From positions 1 to 64,000 of the forward strand of contig JOGW01000018.1 in the NCBI GenBank assembly GCA_000721375.1: DNA of 64,000 nt, in the 5' to 3' direction. The position numbers were made by a program, and so were the translations under genes. The notes below the pieces were generated by a model. It had not been told where the DNA came from and did no database searches. It was given only the letters and a program-made list of their open reading frames with translations. Below are positions 41 through 17,332 of this stretch, in pieces (the first letter of the stretch is position 1; each line of letters begins with the position of its first letter). This DNA is from Streptomyces sp. NRRL B-3428 (GTDB taxonomy: Bacteria; Actinomycetota; Actinomycetes; Streptomycetales; Streptomycetaceae).

Positions 41-78
41 GACCTGTGCAAACAGGTCCTTCACGGCCGAGAAGGACC
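41..78. promoter_or_regulatory. two overlapping inverted repeats upstream of nirB
   Basis: Positions 41-47 (GACCTGT) and 52-58 (ACAGGTC) form a perfect 7-bp dyad with a 4-nt centre. Positions 55-62 (GGTCCTTC) and 71-78 (GAAGGACC) form a second perfect 8-bp dyad. The two share bases 55-58, so as RNA they would be mutually exclusive hairpins. They may be an operator plus terminator of the gene before the window, or part of the nirB leader. The rest of bases 1-130 shows no gene and no convincing promoter. Confidence 0.4.
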
Positions 79-139: not shown

Positions 140-2911
140 ATGACCCAGACCCTGGTACTGATCGGCCACGGCATGGTGGGCCAGCACTTCCTGGAGGTGC
201 TCGCCGAGCGCGGAGCCTTCGCCGGTGACGACGGGCCCGGCTGGCATGTGGTCGTCCTCGCCGAGGAGAACCGCGTCGCCTACGACCGCGTGCACCTCTC
301 CTCCGCCTTCACGGGCACCGACCCCGACGAACTCTCCCTCACGGACGCCGAGTTCATCGAGCGGCACGGCATCGATCTGCGCCTGGGCGACCCGGCCGAC
401 CACATCGACACCACCGCCCGCAAGGTCACCACCGCCTCCGGGGCGGTCGTCGCCTACGACGCCCTGGTCCTGGCCACGGGCTCGTACCCCTTCGTCCCGC
501 CCATCGACGGCGCCGACGCCCCCGGCTGCTTCACCTACCGCACCCTCTACGACGTCGAGGCCCTCACCTCGTACTCGAAGGAGGCGAAGACCGGCGTCGT
601 CGTCGGCGGCGGTCTGCTCGGTCTCGAAGCGGCCGGCGCGCTGCGCACCCTCGGGCTGCAGACCCACGTCGTCGAGTTCGCCCCGCGCCTCATGCCGCTC
701 CAGGTCGACGACGGCGGCGCCGCCGCGCTCCGCTCGACCATCGAGAGCATGGGCGTCGCCGTGCACACCGGTGTCGGCGCCAGCAGCATCGAGACCGACG
801 GCGACGGCCGCACCCGCGCCCTGCGGCTGTCCAACGGCGAGACCATCAACGCCGACCTTGTCGTCTTCTCCGCCGGTGTCCGCCCCCGCGACCGCCTCGC
901 CCGCGAGGCGGGCATAGCCGTCGGCGACCGCGGCGGCGTCGTGGTCGACGAGCACTGCCGCACCACCGACGCGTACATCTACGCCATCGGCGAGTGCGCC
1001 CAGACCGCCGACGGCCGGGTCTACGGCCTGGTCGCGCCCGGCTACCAGATGGCCGAGGCAGCCGCCGACGCCCTCGCGGGCGAGGGCAGCAAGGTCTTCA
1101 ACGGAGCCGACACCTCCACCAAGCTGAAGCTGATGGGCGCCGATGTGGCCTCCTTCGGCGACCCGTTCGCGCAGGAGGGCAAGGACGGAGCGGTCTCCGT
1201 CGTCTTCTCCGACTCGCGCGACGGCGTCTACAAGAAGCTGCTGCTCGGTCCCGACGGCGCCCTGCTCGGCGGCATCCTCGTCGGTGACGCCGACGCGTAC
1301 TCCTCGCTGAAGCCGCACACCGGCAAGCAACTCCCCGCCCCCGCCGAGGCCTATGTCGGCCCCGTGACCGCCGCCGACATCCCCGGCGCCGACGCCCTGC
1401 CCGATGACGCGGTGCTCTGCTCCTGCCACAACGTCACCAAGGCGCAGGTCACTTCGGCCATCGCCGCCGAGGGCATCACCGACCTCGGTGGCATCAAGAA
1501 GTGCACCAAGGCCGGTACGGGCTGCGGCGGTTGCGTCAACACCCTCCAGGCCGTCCTGGACGCCGAACTCGCCGCCGCCGGCATCGAGAAGGCCAAGGGC
1601 CTGTGCGAACACTTCGAGCTCTCCCGCTCGGAGATCTACGACAGGATCCGCACCGAGCACATCCGTTCCTTCACGGAGCTGCTCGAGAAGTACGGCAAGG
1701 GCGAGGGCTGCACGGTCTGCAAGCCGGTCGTCGGCAACGTCCTCGGCACGCTCGGCCCCGAGCTCGGCCTCACCCACATCCTCGACGGCGAACAGGCCGG
1801 CCTGCAGGACTCCAACGACCTGTACCTCGCCAACCTCCAAAAGGACGGCACCTACTCGGTCGTCCCGCGCATCCCCGGCGGTGAGATCACCCCCGAGGCG
1901 CTCATCGTGATCGGCGAAATCGCCCGCGACTACGGCCTCTACACGAAGATCACCGGCGGTCAGCGCATCGACCTGTTCGGCGCCCGAGCCGAGCAACTCC
2001 CGGAGATCTGGCAGCGGATGGTCGACGCCGGCATGGAGTCCGGCCACGCCTACGGCAAGTCCCTTCGTACGGTGAAGTCCTGCATCGGGTCGAAGTTCTG
2101 CCGCTTCGGCCAGGGCGACTCCGTGCAGCTCGCGATCGACCTTGAGCTGCGCTACCGCGGTCTGCGGGCACCCCACAAGATCAAGGGTGGTGTCTCGGGC
2201 TGTCTGCGCGAGTGCGCCGAGGCCCGCGGCAAGGACATCGGCGTCATCGCCACCGCCAACGGCTGGAACCTCTACGTCTGCGGCAACGGCGGCACCAACC
2301 CCCGACACGCGGACCTGCTGGCCGCCGACCTGGACGCGGGCGAACTCTTCCGCCTCATCGACCGCTTCCTCATGTACTACGTCCGCACGGCCGAGCGCCT
2401 GGAGCGCACCTCCGCGTGGCTGGAGCGCATCGACGGCGGCCTGGACCACCTCAAGTCCGTCCTCATCGAGGACTCCCTCGGCATCGGCGCCGAGCTGGAA
2501 GCCCAGATGGAACGCCACGTCGCCGCCTACCAGGACGAGTGGGCCGCCGTGCTCGCCGACCCGGAGAAGCTCAAGCGCTTCAAGCCGTTCACGGCCGCCC
2601 CTGAGGACGGCGTCGACTTCCGCGATGCCATGGAGAACGCGGTCGCCGAGCTGGAGCCGGGCCGCGGCCGCGTGGCCGTGCTGCCCGACGGCACCGAGGC
2701 GGCCCTGTTCAAGGACCGCTCCGGCGAGCTCTACGCGGTCGGCAACCTCGACCCGTACTCCGGCCAGGGCGTGATGGCGAACGGCATCATGGGCAGCCGC
2801 GACGGCGTCCCGACGATCGCCTCGCCCATGCACAAGCAGGAGTTCGACCTGCGCACCGGTGTCAGCCTGGACGACCCCGCTGTCTTCCTGGGCATCCCCG
2901 AGCTGCCGTAG
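140..2911 (+). CDS. nirB: nitrite reductase [NAD(P)H], large subunit fused to a NirD-like domain
   Basis: Assimilatory NAD(P)H nitrite reductase that reduces nitrite to ammonium in the cytoplasm using FAD, Fe-S and sirohaem. The N-terminal ~400 residues are a pyridine nucleotide-disulphide oxidoreductase (IGHGMVG and VVGGGLLGLEAAG dinucleotide motifs). A BFD-type [2Fe-2S] domain follows (CSCHNVTK and CTKAGTGCGGC, ~430-465). The sirohaem/4Fe-4S ligands are CIGSKFC (~648) and GCLREC (~688). The last ~80 residues resemble NirD (VGNLDPYSGQGVMANGIMG, SPMHKQEFDLRTG) but stop before the final strands usual for NirD. A GTG lies at 131, but GGAG at 126-129 is 10 nt from the ATG at 140, which is preferred. 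It lies upstream of narK in the same orientation. Confidence 0.93.
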   Translation: MTQTLVLIGHGMVGQHFLEVLAERGAFAGDDGPGWHVVVLAEENRVAYDRVHLSSAFTGTDPDELSLTDAEFIERHGIDLRLGDPADHIDTTARKVTTASGAVVAYDALVLATGSYPFVPPIDGADAPGCFTYRTLYDVEALTSYSKEAKTGVVVGGGLLGLEAAGALRTLGLQTHVVEFAPRLMPLQVDDGGAAALRSTIESMGVAVHTGVGASSIETDGDGRTRALRLSNGETINADLVVFSAGVRPRDRLAREAGIAVGDRGGVVVDEHCRTTDAYIYAIGECAQTADGRVYGLVAPGYQMAEAAADALAGEGSKVFNGADTSTKLKLMGADVASFGDPFAQEGKDGAVSVVFSDSRDGVYKKLLLGPDGALLGGILVGDADAYSSLKPHTGKQLPAPAEAYVGPVTAADIPGADALPDDAVLCSCHNVTKAQVTSAIAAEGITDLGGIKKCTKAGTGCGGCVNTLQAVLDAELAAAGIEKAKGLCEHFELSRSEIYDRIRTEHIRSFTELLEKYGKGEGCTVCKPVVGNVLGTLGPELGLTHILDGEQAGLQDSNDLYLANLQKDGTYSVVPRIPGGEITPEALIVIGEIARDYGLYTKITGGQRIDLFGARAEQLPEIWQRMVDAGMESGHAYGKSLRTVKSCIGSKFCRFGQGDSVQLAIDLELRYRGLRAPHKIKGGVSGCLRECAEARGKDIGVIATANGWNLYVCGNGGTNPRHADLLAADLDAGELFRLIDRFLMYYVRTAERLERTSAWLERIDGGLDHLKSVLIEDSLGIGAELEAQMERHVAAYQDEWAAVLADPEKLKRFKPFTAAPEDGVDFRDAMENAVAELEPGRGRVAVLPDGTEAALFKDRSGELYAVGNLDPYSGQGVMANGIMGSRDGVPTIASPMHKQEFDLRTGVSLDDPAVFLGIPELP

Positions 2912-2949
2912 CGCACCGACGGGCTGCCGTAACCGCAGCACACGCCACC

Positions 2950-2980
2950 CCGGGCCGGTCCTCGACGAGGGCCGGCCCGG
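2950..2980 (+). terminator. GC-rich hairpin after nirB
   Basis: CCGGGCCGG (2950-2958) pairs with CCGGCCCGG (2972-2980). The loop itself contains CCTCG/CGAGG complementarity. It sits about 40 nt after the nirB stop, so nirB and narK probably do not share one uninterrupted transcript. Confidence 0.6.
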
Positions 2981-3080
2981 TCGGCACAGGCGCCCGGGAT
3001 CCGGGCCGCACGTCCCGACGAGCGGTCGGTATGAAGGCCCTACGGTCCGAGGCCCACCGGTCCCAACGTCCGCCCCGACA

Positions 3081-3095
3081 CAGGCCCTTGGCCTG
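3081..3095. promoter_or_regulatory. perfect 15-bp dyad upstream of narK
   Basis: CAGGCC-CTT-GGCCTG is a perfect inverted repeat about 90 nt before the narK start, in the 276-nt spacer after nirB. Its GGCC arms loosely recall DevR/OsdR hypoxia boxes, but the match is weak. The regulator is not identified. Confidence 0.35.
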
Positions 3096-3187
3096 CGGAC
3101 AAGCCGACTTACGCCTCTCCCCGCAAGGAAAGAGGGGACGCAACCTGGATAGGTACGGATCCCCTCCTTCACCCCCAGGAACAGCGC

Positions 3188-4603
3188 ATGCCTGCCGTCA
3201 AGGAAACAGTCGAGGTCGCACAGCGGTCGTACGACCCCGCGCAGTACCGCCCGGGCCGCCCCATCACCGACTGGGAACCCGAGAACGAGCTCTTCTGGAA
3301 GTCCACGGGCAAGCGCGTGGCCCAGCGCAACCTGTGGATCGCCGTCCCCGCCCTGCTCGTCGCCTTCGTGGTGTGGCAGGTGTGGAGCGTCACCGCGACG
3401 AACCTCAAGGACGTCGGCTTCGGCTTCACGACCTCGCAGCTGTTCTGGCTGACGGCCATCCCCGGCATCACCGGTGGTACGGCCCGAATCTTCTACACGT
3501 TCCTGGGCCCGAAGGTCGGCCAGCGCAAGTTCACCGCGCTCTCCACGGTCATCCTGATCGTCCCGCTCCTGTGGCTGGGCTTCGCGATCCAGGACACCTC
3601 GACCTCCTTCACCACGATGGCGATGATCGCCGCGCTCTGCGGTGTCGGTGGCGCCAACTTCTCCTCCGCACTGGCCAACATCGGCTTCTTCTTCCCGAAG
3701 AAGGAGAAGGGCAACGCGACCGGCATCAACGGCGGCCTCGGCAACCTCGGTGTCTCCGTGGTCCAGCTGCTCACCCCGATCCTGATCACCAGCTCGGTGC
3801 TCGCGATCGGCTCCGGCCAGCACAACGCGGCCAAGGGCAAGGACGTCTACCTCCAGAACGCCGCCTTCGTATGGGTCCCGGTCCTGATCGTGCTCGCCGC
3901 CGTCGCGTGGTTCGGCCAGAACGACCTGAAGACCGCCTCCACCTCCTTCAGCCAGCAGAAGGTCATCTTCAAGCGCAAGCACAACTGGCTGATGACCTGG
4001 CTCTACGTCGGCACCTTCGGCTCCTTCATCGGTTTCGCCGCCGCGCTGCCGATGCTGATCAAGACCACGTTCCCGGCCTACTCGGTCGCCACCTACGCCT
4101 GGATGGGCCCGGCCCTCGGCGCCCTGGCCCGCTGGGCCGGCGGCTGGGTCGCCGACAAGCTGGGTGGCGCCCGCGTCACGATCATCTCCTTCGTGGGCAT
4201 GGCCGTCTCGATCATCGGCGTGATCAACTTCCTGCCCTCGGGCGGCAATGACGGCAACTTCGCCGGCTTCTTCGTCTCCTTCCTGGCCGCGTTCTTCTTC
4301 TCCGGCATCGGCAACGGCTCGACCTTCCGCCAGATCCCGGTGATCTTCCGCAACCAGCACCTGAAGGGCCTGACCGAGGGCACGCCGGAGTACGCGAAGG
4401 CGCTGAAGCAGACCGAGATGGAGGCGGGCGCCGTCACCGGCTTCACCGCCGCGATCGCCGCCTACGGCTTCTTCTTCATCCCGGCCCTGTTCGCGAACTT
4501 CGCCGTGACCAGCGCGATGTGGGGCTTCGTGGCCTTCTACGTCAGCTGCATCGTGGTCACGTGGTGGTTCTACGCCCGCAAGGGCGCCGAGTCGCCGTCC
4601 TGA
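3188..4603 (+). CDS. narK: NarK-type nitrate/nitrite MFS transporter
   Basis: Integral membrane transporter of the NNP branch of the major facilitator superfamily, moving nitrate in and/or nitrite out. The 471-aa product has about 12 hydrophobic segments. It carries Gly-rich NNP-like stretches (GGANFSSALANIGFFFPK and GINGGLGNLGVS, around residues 155-185; SGIGNGSTFRQIPVIF, ~374-389). A long N-terminal hydrophilic segment precedes TM1. AGGA at 3177-3180 precedes the ATG. Placement between nirB and pflB suggests it feeds nitrite reduction or exports nitrite during nitrate respiration; no nitrate reductase is in the window, so direction is inferred. Confidence 0.93.
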   Translation: MPAVKETVEVAQRSYDPAQYRPGRPITDWEPENELFWKSTGKRVAQRNLWIAVPALLVAFVVWQVWSVTATNLKDVGFGFTTSQLFWLTAIPGITGGTARIFYTFLGPKVGQRKFTALSTVILIVPLLWLGFAIQDTSTSFTTMAMIAALCGVGGANFSSALANIGFFFPKKEKGNATGINGGLGNLGVSVVQLLTPILITSSVLAIGSGQHNAAKGKDVYLQNAAFVWVPVLIVLAAVAWFGQNDLKTASTSFSQQKVIFKRKHNWLMTWLYVGTFGSFIGFAAALPMLIKTTFPAYSVATYAWMGPALGALARWAGGWVADKLGGARVTIISFVGMAVSIIGVINFLPSGGNDGNFAGFFVSFLAAFFFSGIGNGSTFRQIPVIFRNQHLKGLTEGTPEYAKALKQTEMEAGAVTGFTAAIAAYGFFFIPALFANFAVTSAMWGFVAFYVSCIVVTWWFYARKGAESPS

Positions 4604-4644
4604 CCCGACCGTCACAGCGCCTGTCATGGCGACCTGCTGACCAC

Positions 4645-4677
4645 GCCCCCGAAGACCGCACACCGGTTTTCGGGGGC
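4645..4677 (+). terminator. rho-independent-type terminator after narK
   Basis: GCCCCCGAA (4645-4653) pairs perfectly with TTCGGGGGC (4669-4677) around a 15-nt loop, about 40 nt after the narK stop. It separates narK from the pfl promoter region. Confidence 0.75.
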
Positions 4678-4700
4678 TTCGGCGTACTCGGGAAGAAAAA

Positions 4701-4720
4701 CTTGTGAAAGTTTTCACAAG
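4701..4720. promoter_or_regulatory. Rex operator (ROP-like) upstream of pflB
   Basis: CTTGTGAAA-GT-TTTCACAAG is a perfect 9-bp inverted repeat. Its core TGTGAAAGTTTTCACA fits the Streptomyces Rex consensus TGTGAACNNNTTCACA at every fixed position but one. Rex represses respiratory and fermentative genes until NADH/NAD+ rises at low oxygen. The site lies 178 nt before the pflB ATG. Binding by Rex is inferred from the consensus. Confidence 0.8.
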
Positions 4721-4727
4721 CGGACAA

Positions 4728-4820
4728 GGGACCTTGGTCCTCGAAGAAACCGCAGGTCGGAGGCCTGCTGGCATGCGGGCCCGGCTCATCCGGGGGACCA
4801 TTGGTACCGAACCCGGGACC
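4728..4820. promoter_or_regulatory. three GGGACC half-sites, DevR/OsdR-like, upstream of pflB
   Basis: GGGACC occurs at 4728, 4794 and 4815. The first is part of the dyad GGACC-TT-GGTCC (4729-4740), close to the core of the mycobacterial DosR/DevR box (GGGACTWWAGTCCC). The second and third start 21 bp apart, two helical turns, each followed by AT. This matches the style of DevR/OsdR hypoxia sites but is not a full consensus match. A separate perfect 10-bp palindrome TGATCGATCA lies at 4835-4844. Confidence 0.45.
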
Positions 4821-4897
4821 ATCGCTGCCCCAAATGATCGATCAAACGCAGTCCAATGGTGAGTAAGCAATGACGCGGCAATTCGGAAGGTGCGGCC

Positions 4898-7168
4898 ATG
4901 ACTGCAGCTCCTGCGGAAGCAACGGTTAACGGCGAGGCCTGGGACGGCTTCAAGGGCGGGCTGTGGCGCGACGCCATCGATGTCCGCGACTTCATTCAGC
5001 AGAACTACACCCCGTACGAGGGCGACGACTCGTTCCTCGCGGGCCCCACCGAGCGGACCACCGCCGTGTGGAAGGCCATCACGGACAAGTTCCCGGAGGA
5101 GCGCGAGAAGGGCGTCTACGACGTCGCGTACGACATTCCGTCGTCGATCACCGCGCACGCCCCGGGCTACATCGACCGAGACAAGGACCTGATCGTCGGT
5201 CTGCAGACGGACGCCCCGCTCAAGCGCGCGATCATGCCGTACGGCGGCTGGCGCATGGTGGCCGGCGCTCTGAAGACCTACGGCTACCCGGTCTCCGAAG
5301 ACCTGGAGAAGGTCTTCACCGAGTACCGCAAGTCGCACAACTCCGGTGTCTTCGACGCCTACACCCCCGAGATCCTCGCCGCCCGCAAGGCCGGCATCGT
5401 CACCGGTCTCCCGGACGCCTACGGCCGCGGCCGCATCATCGGCGACTACCGCCGCGTGGCCCTCTACGGCGTCGACCGTCTCATCGAGATCAAGAAGACC
5501 GAGAAGAACGAGATCGCCGCCATGCCGGCAGGCGACCGTTCGCTCGAGGAGACCATCCGCCTTCGCGAGGAGCTCTCGGAGCAGATCCGCGCGCTCGGCG
5601 AGCTGAAGCAGATGGCCGAGGCCTACGGCTACGACATCTCCGGCCCCGCCAAGACCGGCCGCGAGGCCATCCAGTGGCTGTACTTCGCGTACCTCGCCGC
5701 CGTGAAGGAGCAGAACGGCGCGGCCATGTCGCTGGGCCGTACCTCCACCTTCGTGGACGTCTTCCTCCAGCGTGACATCGCCAAGGGCCTCATCACCGAG
5801 GAGCAGGCGCAGGAGCTCGTCGACGACTTCATCATCAAGCTCCGCATCGTGCGCTTCCTGCGCACCCCGGAGTACGACGAGCTGTTCTCCGGCGACCCCA
5901 CCTGGGTCACCGAGTCGATCGCCGGAATGGGCGAGGACGGCCGTCCGCTGGTCACCAAGACCTCGTTCCGCTACCTGCAGACCCTCTACAACCTCGGCCC
6001 GGCCCCCGAGCCGAACATGACGGTCTTCTGGTCGCCGCAGCTGCCGCAGGGCTTCAAGGAGTACTGCGCCAAGGTCTCCATCGACACCTCCTCGGTGCAG
6101 TACGAGTCCGACGAGCTGATGCGCCCGCGCTTCGGCGACGACACCGCCATCGCCTGCTGTGTCTCGGCGATGCCGGTCGGCAAGCAGATGCAGTTCTTCG
6201 GCGCCCGTGTGAACGTCGCCAAGACCCTGCTCTACGCGATCAACGGCGGCCGTGACGAGAAGTCCGGCGTCCAGGTCGGCCCGAAGACCGAGGCCATCAC
6301 CTCCGAGGTCCTCGACTACGACGAGGTCATGAAGAAGTTCGACGAGCAGATGGAATGGCTCGCCAACGTCTACGTGCACTCGCTGAACGTCATCCACTAC
6401 ATGCACGACAAGTACGCCTACGAGCGCATCGAGATGGCGCTGCACGACCGCGACGTGCGCCGCACGATGGCCTGCGGTATCGCCGGTCTCTCGGTCGCCG
6501 CGGACTCCCTGTCGGCCATCAAGCACGCCAAGGTCACCGTCGTGCGCGACGAGACCGGTCTCGCCACCGACTACACCATCGAGGGCGACTACCCGGCGTA
6601 CGGCAACAACGACGACAAGGTCGACTCCATCGCCGTCTGGCTGGTCGAGGAGTTCATGAAGAAGGTGCGCAAGCACCCGACCTACCGCAACGCCGAGCAC
6701 ACGCAGTCGGTGCTGACGATCACCTCGAACGTGGTCTACGGCAAGAAGACCGGCAACACCCCCGACGGCCGCCGCGCGGGCGAGCCGTTCTCGCCGGGCG
6801 CCAACCCGATGAACGGCCGTGACACACACGGCTACATCGCCTCGGCGATGTCGGTGGCGAAGCTCCCGTACGAGGACGCCGAGGACGGCATCTCGCTGAC
6901 CAACACCGTCACCCCCGACGGCCTCGGCCGCACCCCCGACGAGCGGATCAAGAACCTGGCGGGTGTGCTCGACGGCTACATGGCCTCCGACGGCTTCCAC
7001 ATGAACGTGAACGTCCTCAACCGGGCCGTTCTCGAGGACGCCATGGAGCACCCGGAGAACTACCCGCAGCTGACCATCCGGGTCTCGGGTTACGCGGTCA
7101 ACTTCGTCCGCCTGACCCGTGAGCAGCAGCTCGACGTGCTCAACCGCACCTTCCACGGCTCGCTCTGA
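4898..7168 (+). CDS. pflB: pyruvate formate-lyase (formate C-acetyltransferase)
   Basis: Glycyl-radical enzyme that converts pyruvate and CoA to acetyl-CoA and formate without oxygen. At 756 aa it is essentially full length against about 760 in E. coli. The active-site cysteine pair is in [13 protein letters not shown] (C420-C421) and the radical glycine is in RVSGYAVNF (Gly731) near the C-terminus, followed by LTREQQ. GGAAGG at 4885-4890 precedes the ATG. The activating enzyme pflA follows after a 159-nt spacer full of hairpins. The upstream region carries Rex and possible hypoxia-regulator sites, fitting expression under oxygen limitation. Codon use matches the neighbours, so any horizontal origin is not recent. 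Confidence 0.97.
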
Positions 7169-7175
7169 GCCCCCG

Positions 7176-7286
7176 GCCCGGCGTGCCCCGCACGCCGGGC
7201 CTTCGGCTCGCAGCAAGCACGAACGTGAGCGCGAGCCGACCCCGACTCGCGGCCCCGGGCCTGGGCCCTCACTCCCGGCCCGGGAG
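7176..7286 (+). terminator. three successive hairpins between pflB and pflA
   Basis: Stem 1 is GCCCGGCGTG (7176-7185)/CACGCCGGGC (7191-7200), a perfect 10-bp stem with a 5-nt loop only 7 nt after the pflB stop. Stem 2 is TCGGCTCGC (7203-7211)/GCGAGCCGA (7231-7239). Stem 3 is CTCCCGG (7272-7278)/CCGGGAG (7280-7286), a compact dyad. The first looks like a terminator or attenuator that would lower pflA relative to pflB. The role of the others is unknown. Confidence 0.6.
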
Positions 7287-7327
7287 CCGCGATCACCAAC
7301 CTGCTTCTGCCATTCGGGAGTTGTGCC

Positions 7328-8176
7328 ATGACAGTGCTGCTCGGCAAGGACATCCCCGTCGGTGCGCCGACCGCCGACGAACGTATCGGTCTGCACAGCC
7401 CGACGAGTCGGCCCACGACCCCGGCCGCAGCCGCCACGCAGCGCCCCATCGAGGGCTCCGTGCACTCCTGGGACCTGTCGACGGGCGTCGACGGCCCCGG
7501 CACGCGCTTCGTGACCTTCCTGGCCGGCTGCCCGCTGGCCTGCCTGTACTGCCACAACCCCGACACGATGAAGATGCGCAACGGCAAGCGCACCTCCGCC
7601 GACGACGTGATCGCCGAGGCGGGCAAGTACACGACCTTCATCAAGGCTTCCGGCGGCGGCGCCACCATCTCCGGCGGCGAACCCCTGCTCCAGCCGGTCT
7701 TCGCGGGTGAGCTCTTCCACCGCCTCAAGCACGAACTCGGCCTGCACACCGCGCTCGACACCTCGGGCTTCCTGGGTGCCCGCGCCACCGACGCGATGCT
7801 GCGCGACATCGACCTGGTGCTGCTCGACATCAAGTCCTGGGACCGCGACACCTACAAGAAGGTCACCGCGCGCGAACTGCAGCCCACCCTGGACTTCGCC
7901 CACCGCCTCGCCGACCTCGGCAAGGAGGTGCACGTCCGCTTCGTGCTCGTGCCCGGTCTGACCGACGACCCGGCCAACGTCGAGGGCGTCGCCGCCTTCG
8001 CGGCCTCCCTCGGCAACGTCTCGCGGGTGGACGTGCTGCCCTTCCACAAGCTCGGCCAGTCCAAGTGGGAGGCCCTGGACATGCCGTTCACACTGGCCGA
8101 GACCCCCTCGCCGATGCCCGAGGAGGTCGACGCGGCCAAGCGGATCTTCGAGGCCCACGGCCTGAAGGCCGTCTGA
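7328..8176 (+). CDS. pflA: pyruvate formate-lyase activating enzyme (radical SAM)
   Basis: Uses a 4Fe-4S cluster and S-adenosylmethionine to make the glycyl radical on PflB. The 282-aa protein has the radical-SAM cysteines in GCPLACLYCHNPDT (C68, C72, C75, CX3CX2C) and the SAM-contact motif ISGGEPL (~117). It has an extra ~40-residue N-terminal segment before IEGSVHSWDLSTGVDGPGTR, which is where shorter homologues begin. GGGAG (7316-7320) supports the ATG at 7328. Pairing with pflB makes the assignment firm. Confidence 0.95.
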   Translation: MTVLLGKDIPVGAPTADERIGLHSPTSRPTTPAAAATQRPIEGSVHSWDLSTGVDGPGTRFVTFLAGCPLACLYCHNPDTMKMRNGKRTSADDVIAEAGKYTTFIKASGGGATISGGEPLLQPVFAGELFHRLKHELGLHTALDTSGFLGARATDAMLRDIDLVLLDIKSWDRDTYKKVTARELQPTLDFAHRLADLGKEVHVRFVLVPGLTDDPANVEGVAAFAASLGNVSRVDVLPFHKLGQSKWEALDMPFTLAETPSPMPEEVDAAKRIFEAHGLKAV

Positions 8177-8210: not shown

Positions 8211-8423
8211 ATGAGCACCACCCCGACGCCCCGCGACGAGCGGCCCGAGACCGAGCCCGAGCAGCCGAAGCCCAGGCCCGCGCTCGTCTTCGACGACCCG
8301 CTCGACCAGCAGTCCTCCGACGACACGGACCGGGGCTGGGGCGAGCGGCCGACGGGCGGCAGCGCCGACAGTGCCGCGGACCTCGCACGCTTCCTCGACG
8401 AGAAGCCTCCGCACCACATCTGA
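8211..8423 (+). CDS. small acidic hypothetical protein
   Basis: A 70-aa hydrophilic protein rich in Pro, Asp and Glu, with no membrane segment and no recognisable domain. The C-terminal stretch ADLARFLDEKPPHHI looks like the conserved end of a family of short Streptomyces proteins. GGAGGC abuts the ATG and a TACCCT -10-like hexamer lies just upstream, suggesting a very short leader. Function unknown. It reads from 34 nt after pflA, but its link to that operon is unclear. Confidence 0.6.
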   Translation: MSTTPTPRDERPETEPEQPKPRPALVFDDPLDQQSSDDTDRGWGERPTGGSADSAADLARFLDEKPPHHI

Positions 8424-14581: not shown

Positions 14582-17332
14582 ATGCCCGCGAACACCACCG
14601 CCACTTCGGGTGGCCGCAAGGCCGGCCGGAAGAAGGGGCGCCGCCTCCGCCTGTTTGTCCTCGCCCTCGTGGTGGCGATCGTGGCGGGTATCGGCTTCGG
14701 CGCCTGGTGGAGCATCAGCACCGTGCGCGCCTCCCTTCCGCAGACGAAGGGTTCGCTGACCCTCGACGGTCTGAGCGCGCCCGTGGACGTACGGCGCGAC
14801 GCCCAGGGCATCCCGCAGATCTACGCGGACACCTCCGAGGACCTGTTCCGCGCGCAGGGTTACGTGCAGGCGCAGGACCGGTTCTGGGAGATGGACGTAC
14901 GCCGCCATATGACCTCCGGTCGGCTGTCCGAGATGTTCGGTGAGGGGCAGGTCGACACCGACGCGTTCCTGCGCACGCTGGGCTGGCACAGGACCGCGCA
15001 GGAGGAATACGACACCAAGCTCGCGCCCGACACGAAGAAGTACCTGCAGGCGTACGCCGACGGGGTCAATCAGTACCTCGAAGGCAAGTCCGGCGAGGAC
15101 GTCTCGGTCGAGTACGCGGCCCTCGGCTTCACCACCGACTACGAGATCGAGAAGTGGACCCCGGTCGACTCGGTGGCCTGGCTCAAGGCGATGGCCTGGG
15201 ACCTGCGCGGCAACATGCAGGACGAGATCGACCGCTCGCTGATGTACAGCAGGCTCGGTCCCAAGGAGATCGCCGAGCTCTACCCGGACTACCCGTACGG
15301 CACGCACAAGCCGATCGTGCAGGAAGGCGCGGTCGACACCGCGACCAACACGTACAACCCGAAGGCCACCGCCACCCAAGGTCAGTCGGGCGCCGCGAAC
15401 GGTCTGAACACGGGAGCCACGGGTGCCGCCCTGAACACCCAGCTCTCCGGCCTCTCCAAAGTCCTGGAGAACATGCCCGACGCCGTCGGCCCCAACGGCA
15501 ACGGCATCGGCTCCAACTCCTGGGTGGTCTCCGGCAAGCACACGACCACCGGCATGCCGCTGCTCGCGAACGACCCGCACCTGGCGCCCATGCTGCCCTC
15601 GCTCTGGTACCAGATGGGCCTGCACTGCCGCGGCGGCGTCAGTGAGAAGTGCCAGTACGACGTCTCCGGCTACACCTTCTCCGGTATGCCCGGCGTGATC
15701 ATCGGTCACAACCAGCAGATCGCCTGGGGCATGACCAACCTGGGCGCGGATGTCACCGACCTCTACCTGGAGAAGATCCAGGGCGACGGCTATCTGTACG
15801 ACGGCAAGGTGCTGCCGTTCACGACGCGTACCGAGACGATCAAGATCGCCGGTGGTGAACCCAAGAAGATCACCGTCCGCACGACCAACAACGGCCCGCT
15901 GCTCTCCGACCGCAGCGACGAGCTCGGCAAGGTCGGCGAGGAAGCGCCCGTGGCCAGCTCCGCCCCCGACCGCTCGGACGGCTACGCGGTGGCGCTGAAA
16001 TGGACCGCGCTCGATGCGGGCAAGTCCATGGACGCCGTGTTCCTGATCAACAGGGCGACGGACTTCAAGGAGTTCCAGGCCGCGGCCGCCAAGTTCGAGG
16101 TGCCTTCGCAGAACCTGATCTACGCCGACAAGCAGGGCAACATCGGCTACCAGGCGCCCGGCAAGATCCCCACGCGCTCCGCGAAGCACGACGGCACGCT
16201 GCCCGCCCCCGGCTGGGACTCCTCGTACAACTGGACCGGGTACATCAACCCGAAGGCGCTGCCCTACGAGTACAAACCCGAGCGCGGCTACATCGTGACG
16301 GCGAACCAGGCCGTGATCGACGAGGACAAGTACCCGTACGACCTGACGAAGGACTGGGGCTACGGCGCGCGCAGCCAGCGGATCAACGACCTGATCAAGG
16401 ACAAGATCAAGGGCGGCGGGAAGATCTCCACCGAGGACATGCGCACCATGCAGATGGACTCGAGCAGCGAGATCGCCAACACGCTGAACCACATGCTGAC
16501 CAAGCTCGACATCAAGGACCCCGACGTCCGCGCCGCGCAGAAGCTCCTCGAGGGCTGGAACGGTACGCAGGACGCCGACTCGGCGGCCGCCGCGTACTTC
16601 AACGCGGTGTGGCGCAACGTCCTCAAGCTCGCCTTCGGCAACAAGCTGCCCAAGGAGCTGCGCGTCAAGGGCTCCTGCATCAGCGTCCCGCCGGCCGACA
16701 AGACGGGCCCGGTCGACAACCCCGACGAGCGGGTGCGCGAATGCGGTCAGCGCGACCCGGACGCCGCCCAGCCGGACGGCGGCGACCGCTGGTTCGAGGT
16801 GTTCCGCCAGCTGTCCAAGGACAAGGACAGCGAGTGGTGGCACACGCCCGCGACCCGCACCGACGAGGAGACCACGACCCTCGACGGACTCCTTGCACGC
16901 GCCATGGAGGACGCCCGCTGGGAGCTGACCGCCAAGCTCGGCAAGGACATGGACACCTGGAGCTGGGGCCGGCTGCACACCCTGGAGCTGAAGAACCAGA
17001 CCATCGGCACCGAGGGCCCGGGCTTCATGCAGTGGCTGCTCAACCGAGGCCCCTACAAGCTCGGCGGCGGTGAGGCAGCGGTCGATGCGACCGGCTGGAA
17101 CGCGGCCGGCGGCTACGAGGTGATCTGGGTGCCGTCGATGCGGATGGTGGTCAACCTCCAGGACTTCGACAAGTCCAAGTGGATCAACCTGACCGGTGCG
17201 TCGGGGCATGCGTACAGCCCCAACTACACCGATCAGACCGACAAATGGGTCAAGGGCGAACTGCTCGACTGGTCGTTCACCAAGGACGCGGTCGAGGAGT
17301 CGACCGAGAACCACCTGGTGCTCAAGCCGTAA
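14582..17332 (+). CDS. penicillin acylase family protein (Ntn hydrolase)
   Basis: Peptidase S45-type amidohydrolase of 916 aa, exported or membrane-anchored through one N-terminal helix (LRLFVLALVVAIVAGIGFGAWW) after a Lys/Arg-rich start. The alpha-chain region has DVRRDAQGIPQIYADT and GYVQAQDRFWEMDV. The self-cleavage site and N-terminal nucleophile are in NGIGSNSWVVSG (Ser311), followed by MPLLANDPHL. Family members hydrolyse beta-lactam side chains or N-acyl-homoserine lactones; the substrate here is unknown. GGAC with the ATG at 14582 sets the start. The 3' end overlaps the convergent cyclo-ligase gene by 11 nt. Confidence 0.92.
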   Translation: MPANTTATSGGRKAGRKKGRRLRLFVLALVVAIVAGIGFGAWWSISTVRASLPQTKGSLTLDGLSAPVDVRRDAQGIPQIYADTSEDLFRAQGYVQAQDRFWEMDVRRHMTSGRLSEMFGEGQVDTDAFLRTLGWHRTAQEEYDTKLAPDTKKYLQAYADGVNQYLEGKSGEDVSVEYAALGFTTDYEIEKWTPVDSVAWLKAMAWDLRGNMQDEIDRSLMYSRLGPKEIAELYPDYPYGTHKPIVQEGAVDTATNTYNPKATATQGQSGAANGLNTGATGAALNTQLSGLSKVLENMPDAVGPNGNGIGSNSWVVSGKHTTTGMPLLANDPHLAPMLPSLWYQMGLHCRGGVSEKCQYDVSGYTFSGMPGVIIGHNQQIAWGMTNLGADVTDLYLEKIQGDGYLYDGKVLPFTTRTETIKIAGGEPKKITVRTTNNGPLLSDRSDELGKVGEEAPVASSAPDRSDGYAVALKWTALDAGKSMDAVFLINRATDFKEFQAAAAKFEVPSQNLIYADKQGNIGYQAPGKIPTRSAKHDGTLPAPGWDSSYNWTGYINPKALPYEYKPERGYIVTANQAVIDEDKYPYDLTKDWGYGARSQRINDLIKDKIKGGGKISTEDMRTMQMDSSSEIANTLNHMLTKLDIKDPDVRAAQKLLEGWNGTQDADSAAAAYFNAVWRNVLKLAFGNKLPKELRVKGSCISVPPADKTGPVDNPDERVRECGQRDPDAAQPDGGDRWFEVFRQLSKDKDSEWWHTPATRTDEETTTLDGLLARAMEDARWELTAKLGKDMDTWSWGRLHTLELKNQTIGTEGPGFMQWLLNRGPYKLGGGEAAVDATGWNAAGGYEVIWVPSMRMVVNLQDFDKSKWINLTGASGHAYSPNYTDQTDKWVKGELLDWSFTKDAVEESTENHLVLKP

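What the first reader, a model, noticed from the sequence alone, without database searches (positions are those of the whole stretch)
140..8176. Anaerobic/hypoxic module in a Streptomyces: nirB(D), narK, pflB, pflA
Pyruvate formate-lyase and its activase are oxygen-sensitive enzymes of fermentation, rare in this aerobic genus. Both are intact at all catalytic residues (CC pair, radical Gly, CX3CX2C) and use typical codons. They follow narK and a nitrite reductase, giving a coherent set for living with little oxygen: nitrate/nitrite traffic, nitrite reduction and radical-based pyruvate breakdown. A Rex site and hypoxia-like half-sites precede pflB.
Basis: partly seen in the sequence, partly recalled or inferred. 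Interest (0 to 1): 0.72.

Follow-up and report, generated by a model that had tools for sequence, protein, structure and literature searches.

The report
Streptomyces fermentation genes under dual switch
A soil bacterium normally thought of as strictly air-breathing carries an intact oxygen-sensitive fermentation enzyme, and its control region has the same layout of predicted redox and low-oxygen switches as a distant gene for the next step of ethanol fermentation, which makes survival without oxygen in this genus directly testable.

Summary
The genes are real and intact: fused nirBD (140-2911), narK (3188-4603), pflB (4898-7168), pflA (7328-8176). The claim of rarity is wrong: 145 of 392 Streptomyces genomes have a pyruvate formate-lyase match (134 above cut-off); 40 of 139 examined places have narK upstream. 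A pyruvate formate-lyase in the Streptomyces OsdR regulon is already in print.

What looks new is the control region. A perfect Rex operator (4702-4719) is followed at fixed offsets by a DevR/OsdR-like box (+26), a CAGGTC block (+51) and a second DevR-like box (+92). The genome has exactly two perfect Rex operators; the other precedes adhE on another contig, with the same layout. Across 392 genomes the Rex+box motif occurs 50 times in 33 genomes (reversed control: 0), 24 before pflB and 17 before adhE; 15 genomes have both.

Best reading: pflBA and adhE form an ethanol/formate fermentation regulon, held off by Rex when NADH is low and activated by a DevR/OsdR-type regulator in hypoxia. Binding and expression are untested. 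Most pfl loci of the genus lack the element. The link of narK and nirBD rests on synteny.

Separately, pflB alone was replaced by an allele of another clade; its neighbours follow the strain's own lineage.

The parts
140..2911 (+). nirBD: NADH-dependent siroheme-type nitrite reductase, large and small subunit fused
   Evidence: NF011565 1012 bits (cut-off 883), TIGR02374 999, Pfam Rieske_2 at residues 835-915
3188..4603 (+). narK: nitrate/nitrite MFS transporter
   Evidence: TIGR00886 316 bits (cut-off 311.7)
4702..4719 (+). Rex operator, perfect palindrome TTGTGAAAGTTTTCACAA, 196 bases before the pflB start
   Evidence: 0 mismatches to the S. avermitilis Rex consensus (PMC5355995, passage); similar position in relatives that keep a Rex site
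4728..4741 (+). DevR/OsdR-like box 1 GGGACCTTGGTCCT, offset +26 from the Rex start
4753..4758 (+). conserved CAGGTC block, offset +51, factor unknown
   Evidence: offset 51 in 9 of 9 pflB promoters parsed of 13 tried (one with 1 mismatch), offset 52 in 9 of 10 adhE sequences parsed of 11 tried (the tenth, L305, was mis-parsed)
4794..4807 (+). DevR/OsdR-like box 2 GGGACCATTGGTAC, offset +92
4815..4830 (+). third DevR-like half-site GGGACCATCGCTGCCC
   Evidence: read by eye in the promoters printed
4835..4844 (+). TGATCGATCA palindrome, present in a number of relatives but not all
   Evidence: read by eye in the promoters printed
4898..7168 (+). pflB: pyruvate formate-lyase, 756 aa; Cys420-Cys421 (6155-6160), radical Gly731 (7088-7090); allele of clade A in a clade B lineage
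7328..8176 (+). pflA: PFL-activating radical-SAM enzyme, CX3CX2C at 7529-7552
   Evidence: TIGR02493 286 bits (cut-off 231.75)
8211..8423 (+). 70-aa open frame between pflA and mscL; its like follows the composite site directly in six loci that lack pfl

Best explanation
A genuine pyruvate formate-lyase system (PflB plus its activase PflA) forms, together with the unlinked bifunctional AdhE of the same genome, a small ethanol/formate fermentation regulon. Both promoters carry one composite control element of fixed geometry: Rex operator, DevR/OsdR-like box at +26, CAGGTC at +51/52, second DevR-like box at +92 to +95. Proposed working (inferred): in air, Rex with NAD+ sits on its operator and the OsdR-type regulator is unphosphorylated, so both genes are off. 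When oxygen falls, a DevS/OsdK-type kinase phosphorylates the regulator, which binds the boxes, and a rising NADH/NAD+ ratio releases Rex; only then are pflBA and adhE made. PflA, with SAM, puts a glycyl radical on Gly731; pyruvate plus CoA gives acetyl-CoA and formate; AdhE reduces acetyl-CoA to ethanol and regenerates 2 NAD+ (enzyme chemistry recalled). Shown here: gene identity, catalytic residues, the operator and box sequences, their conserved spacing and shared targets, and the presence of Rex and OsdK/OsdR-like proteins. Not shown: binding, expression, activity.
For: Above-cut-off families and catalytic residues. Exactly two perfect Rex operators in 8.57 Mb: one before pflB, the other before adhE (AdhE NF010378 1371 bits against 951). 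Two further places of that scan carry the S. avermitilis cydA1 and atpI operators letter for letter, a positive control. Same geometry at both promoters. In 29 Rex-anchored pflB promoters (window included), DevR-like boxes stand at +26/27 and +92/93 (lowest mean 2.07 mismatches; best mean in 200 shuffles 5.42 on average, 5.03 at least; related sequences, so not a probability). Genus scan: 50 matches in 33 of 392 genomes, reversed pattern 0; 24 at pflB and 17 at adhE by comparing; 15 genomes with both. One genome without a pfl match has the element before an adhE that is in pieces (G167). adhE directly precedes pflB in 9 of 139 genus places. One Rex gene with a 1-mismatch Rex site just upstream; two OsdK/OsdR-like pairs. 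OsdR bound the SCO5978/5979 probe, whose predicted site is CGGGACCTTCGGCCCT (PMC5069765, passages); its 14-base core stands in the L066 pflB promoter.
Against: No binding or expression data. Rex sits upstream of the boxes, far from the start codon, which is unusual for a simple repressor. The element is at pflB in only 24 of the 134 genomes with an above-cut-off PFL. 20 of 40 narK-type places have no Rex site within 1 mismatch in the 420 bases before pflB, and 18 loci of the named set without one there have none within 2 mismatches anywhere in the stretch held. 9 of 24 genomes with the element at pflB have none at adhE, and five of those nine have no AdhE above cut-off. Of the 17 adhE targets one is in pieces (G167) and one has an internal stop (G322). 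Nine of the 50 matches lie at neither gene: six at loci without pfl, three of an oxidoreductase type. The composite pattern was written after seeing the window; the own-genome Rex scan (up to 2 mismatches) found 12 places against 2 for the reversed pattern, so a few of its weaker places are chance.
Confidence: 0.72

Rival explanations
1. The four genes are one nitrate/nitrite-plus-fermentation module, in which narK and nirBD serve anaerobic nitrate respiration together with PFL.
For: narK lies within 5.5 kb upstream of pflB in 40 of 139 pfl places; nirBD precedes narK in a number of these; two narG genes are in the genome; in relatives a molybdoenzyme, an FeS protein and often a second narK follow pflA.
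Against: No Rex site within 2 mismatches before narK or nirBD in the window (only 139 bases before nirBD exist) and no strong DevR box; nirBD is not always adjacent; in L054 a CbiX-family gene precedes nirBD, which fits siroheme supply for nitrogen assimilation as well. 99 of 139 pfl places have no narK upstream in the stretch taken (contig ends can hide it).
Confidence: 0.35
2. The pfl system is a relic: intact by sequence but hardly used, and the Rex/DevR sites mainly serve other genes at the locus.
For: Six loci without pfl keep the Rex site; several pfl copies in the genus are fragmentary; S. lividans carries a putative PFL-activase pseudogene (PMC6302529, passage).
Against: Full-length frames with all catalytic residues; a pflB replacement that kept frame and promoter; shared geometry with adhE; an S. 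lividans putative PFL transcript rises with the OsdR regulon (PMC6302529, passage).
Confidence: 0.12
3. The boxes called DevR/OsdR-like belong to another regulator with a GGGNC-N4-GNCCC site; Rex control is real but the hypoxia input is not OsdR.
For: The OsdR consensus AGGGCCGATCGGCCCT (PMC5069765, passage) differs from the window boxes; an extra conserved CAGGTC block has no known factor.
Against: A pflB box core (L066) is identical to the core of an S. coelicolor site in a probe bound by OsdR; two OsdK/OsdR-like pairs are in the genome.
Confidence: 0.25

Closest known systems
Putative PFL in the OsdR regulon of S. lividans / S. coelicolor (SCO0206; PMC6302529, passages read)
   Same: PFL gene in a Streptomyces, up-regulated together with nitrate reductase genes, a nitrate/nitrite transporter and OsdR
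   Different: I infer, without its sequence, that it corresponds to the other locus kind seen here: of the 85 places I filed as type II (a mixed bin by my distance rules), 83 have no Rex site within 1 mismatch before pflB; recurrent neighbours there are usp (46 of 85), a response regulator (27), adhE (22) and ppdk (20). The S. lividans activase is called a pseudogene in that paper
Rex regulon of Staphylococcus aureus: pflBA, adhE, nar genes (PMC2883068, listing and start of abstract; described in PMC5355995, passage)
   Same: Rex control of pflBA and adhE
   Different: Other phylum; a second, DevR-like input at fixed spacing is proposed here and was not in what I saw of these papers
Rex regulon of S. 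avermitilis: cyd, atp, nuo, rex-hem (PMC5355995, passages)
   Same: Same operator consensus; cydA1 and atpI operators recovered letter for letter in the window's genome
   Different: pflB occurs once in that paper, for S. aureus; here perfect operators stand before fermentation genes
E. coli PflB/PflA (PDB 1h16)
   Same: Near full-length alignment, both cysteines, radical glycine
   Different: Different control (FNR/ArcA, recalled)

Membership tests
Pyruvate formate-lyase (TIGR01255) | score above the curated cut-off over the full length | tested here: met
   1199 bits against 994.2, residues 14-756
Pyruvate formate-lyase (TIGR01255) | adjacent catalytic cysteines and radical glycine in RVSGYA | tested here: met
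   Cys420-Cys421, Gly731; aligned to 1h16
Pyruvate formate-lyase (TIGR01255) | pyruvate + CoA to acetyl-CoA + formate, glycyl radical | not testable with these tools
   needs protein or cells
PFL-activating enzyme (TIGR02493) | score above cut-off, CX3CX2C, next to pflB | tested here: met
   286 bits against 231.75; CPLACLYC; starts 160 bases after pflB
Rex regulon | TTGTGAA-N4-TTCACAA upstream of the gene and a rex gene in the genome | tested here: met
Rex regulon | Rex binds, NADH releases | not testable with these tools
   gel shift needed
DevR/OsdR regulon | GGGNC-N4-GNCCC-type box conserved in position | tested here: met
   29 anchored promoters, adhE promoters; the pattern count over the window equals chance
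DevR/OsdR regulon | match to the published S. coelicolor OsdR consensus AGGGCCGATCGGCCCT | tested here: inconclusive
   window boxes share the GGG..CC frame, not the GCCGATCGGC core; one relative's box core equals the core of a site in an OsdR-bound probe
DevR/OsdR regulon | OsdK/OsdR-like pair in the genome | tested here: met
   two kinase/regulator pairs, kinases 64 and 63%, regulators 74 and 73% identical to type II-locus proteins taken as OsdK/OsdR-like by domains and context, not by a named S. coelicolor sequence
NirBD nitrite reductase | score above cut-off | tested here: met
   NF011565 1012.2 against 883
NarK transporter (TIGR00886) | score above cut-off | tested here: met
   316 against 311.7, narrowly

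The most novel reading that the evidence does not exclude
Streptomyces and relatives hold a two-input fermentation switch: one composite promoter of strict geometry (Rex operator, DevR box +26, CAGGTC +51/52, DevR box +92 to +95) shared by unlinked pflBA and adhE. It works as an AND gate (low oxygen and high NADH) that keeps an oxygen-labile radical enzyme off in air, with a third, unidentified factor at CAGGTC; meanwhile the pflB coding sequence under this fixed promoter is exchanged between lineages as a unit.
Probability: 0.5. Interest if true: 0.66.

Novelty: new variant of a known kind. Interest (0 to 1): 0.52.

Why it matters
Streptomyces are commonly regarded as obligate aerobes (general knowledge), and how their mycelium stays alive without oxygen is an open question. 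This gives a concrete, minimal gene set (pflBA plus adhE) with a predicted dual control, sites exact enough to mutate, and natural comparisons (genomes with both, one or none of the parts). It also offers a clean case of a single enzyme gene being exchanged inside a conserved promoter and operon.

Tried and rejected
Rarity of PFL in the genus: rejected (145 of 392). Horizontal gain of the whole narK-pfl block: rejected for this strain; only pflB changes clade, narK and pflA stay with S. mesophilus. DevR boxes by frequency in the window: no excess (48 found, 46 expected), so only positional conservation is used. A Rex site moved elsewhere in loci lacking one before pflB: none within 2 mismatches in 18 loci of the named set (L028 and L030, also without one, were not scanned). 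An rRNA operon or other RNA family near the nirBD contig end: no Rfam match in the three relatives' loci given. A chimeric assembly as the cause of the pflB swap cannot be excluded without reads; the tract starts 4.9 kb from the end of a 267-kb contig, and no protein above 92% identity was among the 120 rows listed (only the 7994 candidates sharing most words were scored). DevR-like boxes upstream of the two narG genes: none for one (best 3 mismatches), one at 1 mismatch for the other (7% of shuffles do as well). In one search, 4 of 13 pflB and 1 of 11 adhE sequences were not parsed by my expression and L305 was parsed at a wrong place. Papers: I read passages of three (PMC6302529, PMC5355995, PMC5069765); of all others I saw listings and starts of abstracts. 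No paper on Rex or DevR at a Streptomyces pfl showed up in searches; the library lacks most subscription journals.
Full report
Observation. The four genes are present and intact: fused nirBD, narK, pflB and pflA. All four score above the curated NCBIfam cut-offs, narK only narrowly. PflB aligns along nearly its whole length with E. coli PFL 1h16 and has Cys420-Cys421 and Gly731; PflA has CX3CX2C. The genome has one PFL-like match (PF02901).

Rarity. In 392 Streptomyces genomes (own included), 145 have a TIGR01255 match at E <= 0.001 and 134 are above the cut-off. Outside the own genome one search lists 140 places above the cut-off. I took 138 of them and used the short stretch already held for one more (L095); one, the second copy of G254, was not taken. 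Of these 139 places, 40 have narK within 5.5 kb upstream, 5 more have mscL downstream, 9 have adhE directly upstream, 30 have adhE elsewhere in the stretch and 55 have none of these; pflA is adjacent in 134. The bins follow my distance rules, the last two are mixed, and contig ends can hide neighbours. So PFL is common but not universal, and the narK context is one of several. A putative PFL in the OsdR regulon of S. lividans, with nitrate reductase and nitrate/nitrite transporter genes, is in print (PMC6302529, passages read).

Control region. The window has a perfect Rex operator at 4702-4719 and DevR-like boxes after it. Among the 80 named loci plus the window, 29 Rex-anchored pflB promoters (Rex 190-260 bases before the start; window included) show GGGAC-N4-GTCCC-like boxes at +26/27 (20 of 29 within 2 mismatches, one base of play allowed) and +92/93 (19 of 29). 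The lowest mean is 2.07 mismatches; the best mean over all offsets in 200 shuffles was 5.42 on average and 5.03 at least. The sequences are related, so this is not a probability. Rex in S. avermitilis recognises TTGTGAA-N4-TTCACAA (PMC5355995, passages); OsdR is described as the S. coelicolor counterpart of M. tuberculosis DevR (PMC5069765, passages).

Second target. A scan of the whole genome for the Rex operator with up to 2 mismatches gives 12 places (reversed pattern: 2); exactly two are perfect, C18:4702 (pflB) and C13:146692. The latter lies before an AdhE gene (NF010378 1371 bits against 951). Its promoter has the same 18-mer, GGGACTTTGGTCCC at +26, CAGGTC at +52 and GGGACTTTCTGCCC at +93. 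The 85 bases after the operator agree at 38 positions between pflB and adhE; 0 of 5000 shuffles reach this (maximum 36). Two places with 1 or 2 mismatches carry the published S. avermitilis cydA1 and atpI operators letter for letter, and the first lies beside a cydA-like gene (hit below the curated cut-offs).

Genus-wide test. The pattern operator-N8-GGNNCNNNNGNCC with up to 1 mismatch has 50 matches in 33 of 392 genomes; the reversed pattern has none. By coordinates and tblastn: 24 lie before pflB; 17 before adhE (one, G167, in pieces in a genome without a pfl match; one, G322, with an internal stop); 6 at an mscL locus without pfl; 3 are of a Pyr_redox type (one shown as L297, two judged from similar operator letters only). 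15 genomes have both pflB and adhE elements. In one search I tried the 12 pflB loci that one search had laid plus the window, and the 11 adhE loci; 9 of 13 pflB and 10 of 11 adhE were parsed. CAGGTC is at 51 in all 9 pflB (one with a mismatch) and at 52 in 9 of 10 adhE; box 2 is at 92 or 93 in 8 of 9 pflB (85 in the other) and at 93-95 in 9 of 10 adhE. The tenth adhE sequence (L305) was parsed at a wrong place.

Against. The element stands at pflB in 24 of the 134 genomes with an above-cut-off PFL. Half of the narK-type places (20 of 40) have no Rex site within 1 mismatch in the 420 bases before pflB, and 18 loci of the named set without one there have none within 2 mismatches in all the sequence held. 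In three Kitasatospora/Streptacidiphilus loci the order is DevR box, then Rex. 9 of 24 genomes with the element at pflB lack it at adhE. Rex is upstream of the boxes in the window, so simple promoter occlusion is not evident; hindrance of box 1, 8 bases away, is my inference. No binding or transcript data exist here.

Trans factors. One Rex gene (PF06971), at C32:11645, with a 1-mismatch Rex site just before it. Two kinase/regulator pairs like those near type II pfl loci: C19 (64% and 74%) and C5 (63% and 73%). The query proteins were called OsdK/OsdR-like from their domains (double GAF kinase; receiver plus GerE) and context, not from a named S. coelicolor sequence.

Mechanism. In air both inputs hold the genes off; in hypoxia the regulator is phosphorylated and Rex leaves when NADH rises; PflA activates PflB; acetyl-CoA goes to ethanol by AdhE, regenerating NAD+. 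Formate may be excreted or oxidised: a formate-dehydrogenase-like gene is present but below cut-off (622 against 666 bits), and two narG genes are present. Only gene presence, residues, sites and spacing are shown.

narK and nirBD. The block narK-pflB-pflA is recurrent. In class A relatives a NasC/FdhA-like molybdoenzyme (below both cut-offs), an FeS protein and often a second narK follow pflA; the window lineage has mscL there. This leaves open whether narK serves respiration or assimilation.

pflB replacement. Against S. mesophilus (L047) the window is 93% (nirBD), 94% (narK) and 95% (pflA) identical in protein, but 78% in pflB; pflB is 92% identical to a strain (L002) whose pflA is 78%. DNA identity switches inside the pflB frame, at about 4.9-5.05 kb and 6.98-7.17 kb. 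At 63 residues diagnostic between 23 clade A and 12 clade B sequences the window has clade A at 58, clade B at 2 and neither at 3. A pflB tree with the window beside L047 is rejected (AU p 8.5e-37); the window falls with class A (support 88, not starred) inside a clade of class A and the adhE-pflB type (100). In pflA the window pairs with L047 (support 100); a pflA clade of the window with class A is rejected (p 4e-5), and so is one of window, class A and the adhE-pflB type (p 5.7e-8); window, class A and class B together have support 94, not starred. So pflB has been exchanged alone at least once, probably twice. The groups were named after identities had been seen; the trees are quick searches without bootstrap, and the pflA tree carries a long-branch warning for its outgroups.

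Verdict. The enzymes are a known kind. The shared, spaced Rex/DevR element at two unlinked fermentation units is, as far as my searches reach, undescribed, and it turns a plausible story into a testable regulon.

Noticed in passing
window 4898-7168 against L047 and L002: pflB alone belongs to another clade than its neighbours: an in-place replacement of one gene under a conserved promoter.
   Followed up: yes
L294, L296, L298, L302, L312, L320 (about 1500-1900): At six loci without pfl the Rex site, with more or less of the box-1 letters, survives before the 70-aa frame and mscL; a divergent gene may be what keeps it (inference).
   Followed up: partly
L155 around 10082 (own genome C18:128081) and L297: A 1-mismatch Rex site, with DevR-like letters nearby, precedes a 499-aa pyridine nucleotide-disulphide oxidoreductase.
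   Followed up: partly
window 41-58: Perfect inverted repeat GACCTGT-GCAA-ACAGGTC before nirBD, near-identical in S. mesophilus, sharing CAGGTC with the pflB/adhE promoters.
   Followed up: no
L014 13944-16718 and equivalents in relatives: Molybdopterin oxidoreductase with FeS partner downstream of pflA, between formate dehydrogenase and nitrate reductase by score; absent at this place in the window lineage.
   Followed up: partly
window 14582-17329: Penicillin amidase family protein, 916 aa (Pfam 822 bits).
   Followed up: no
L068, L073, L075 (Cellulosimicrobium-like records): A 1-mismatch Rex site with a GGGACCTAGGTCC-type box roughly 90-100 bases downstream before pflB, outside the Streptomycetaceae; the L068 record is labelled Sphaerisporangium.
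   Followed up: no
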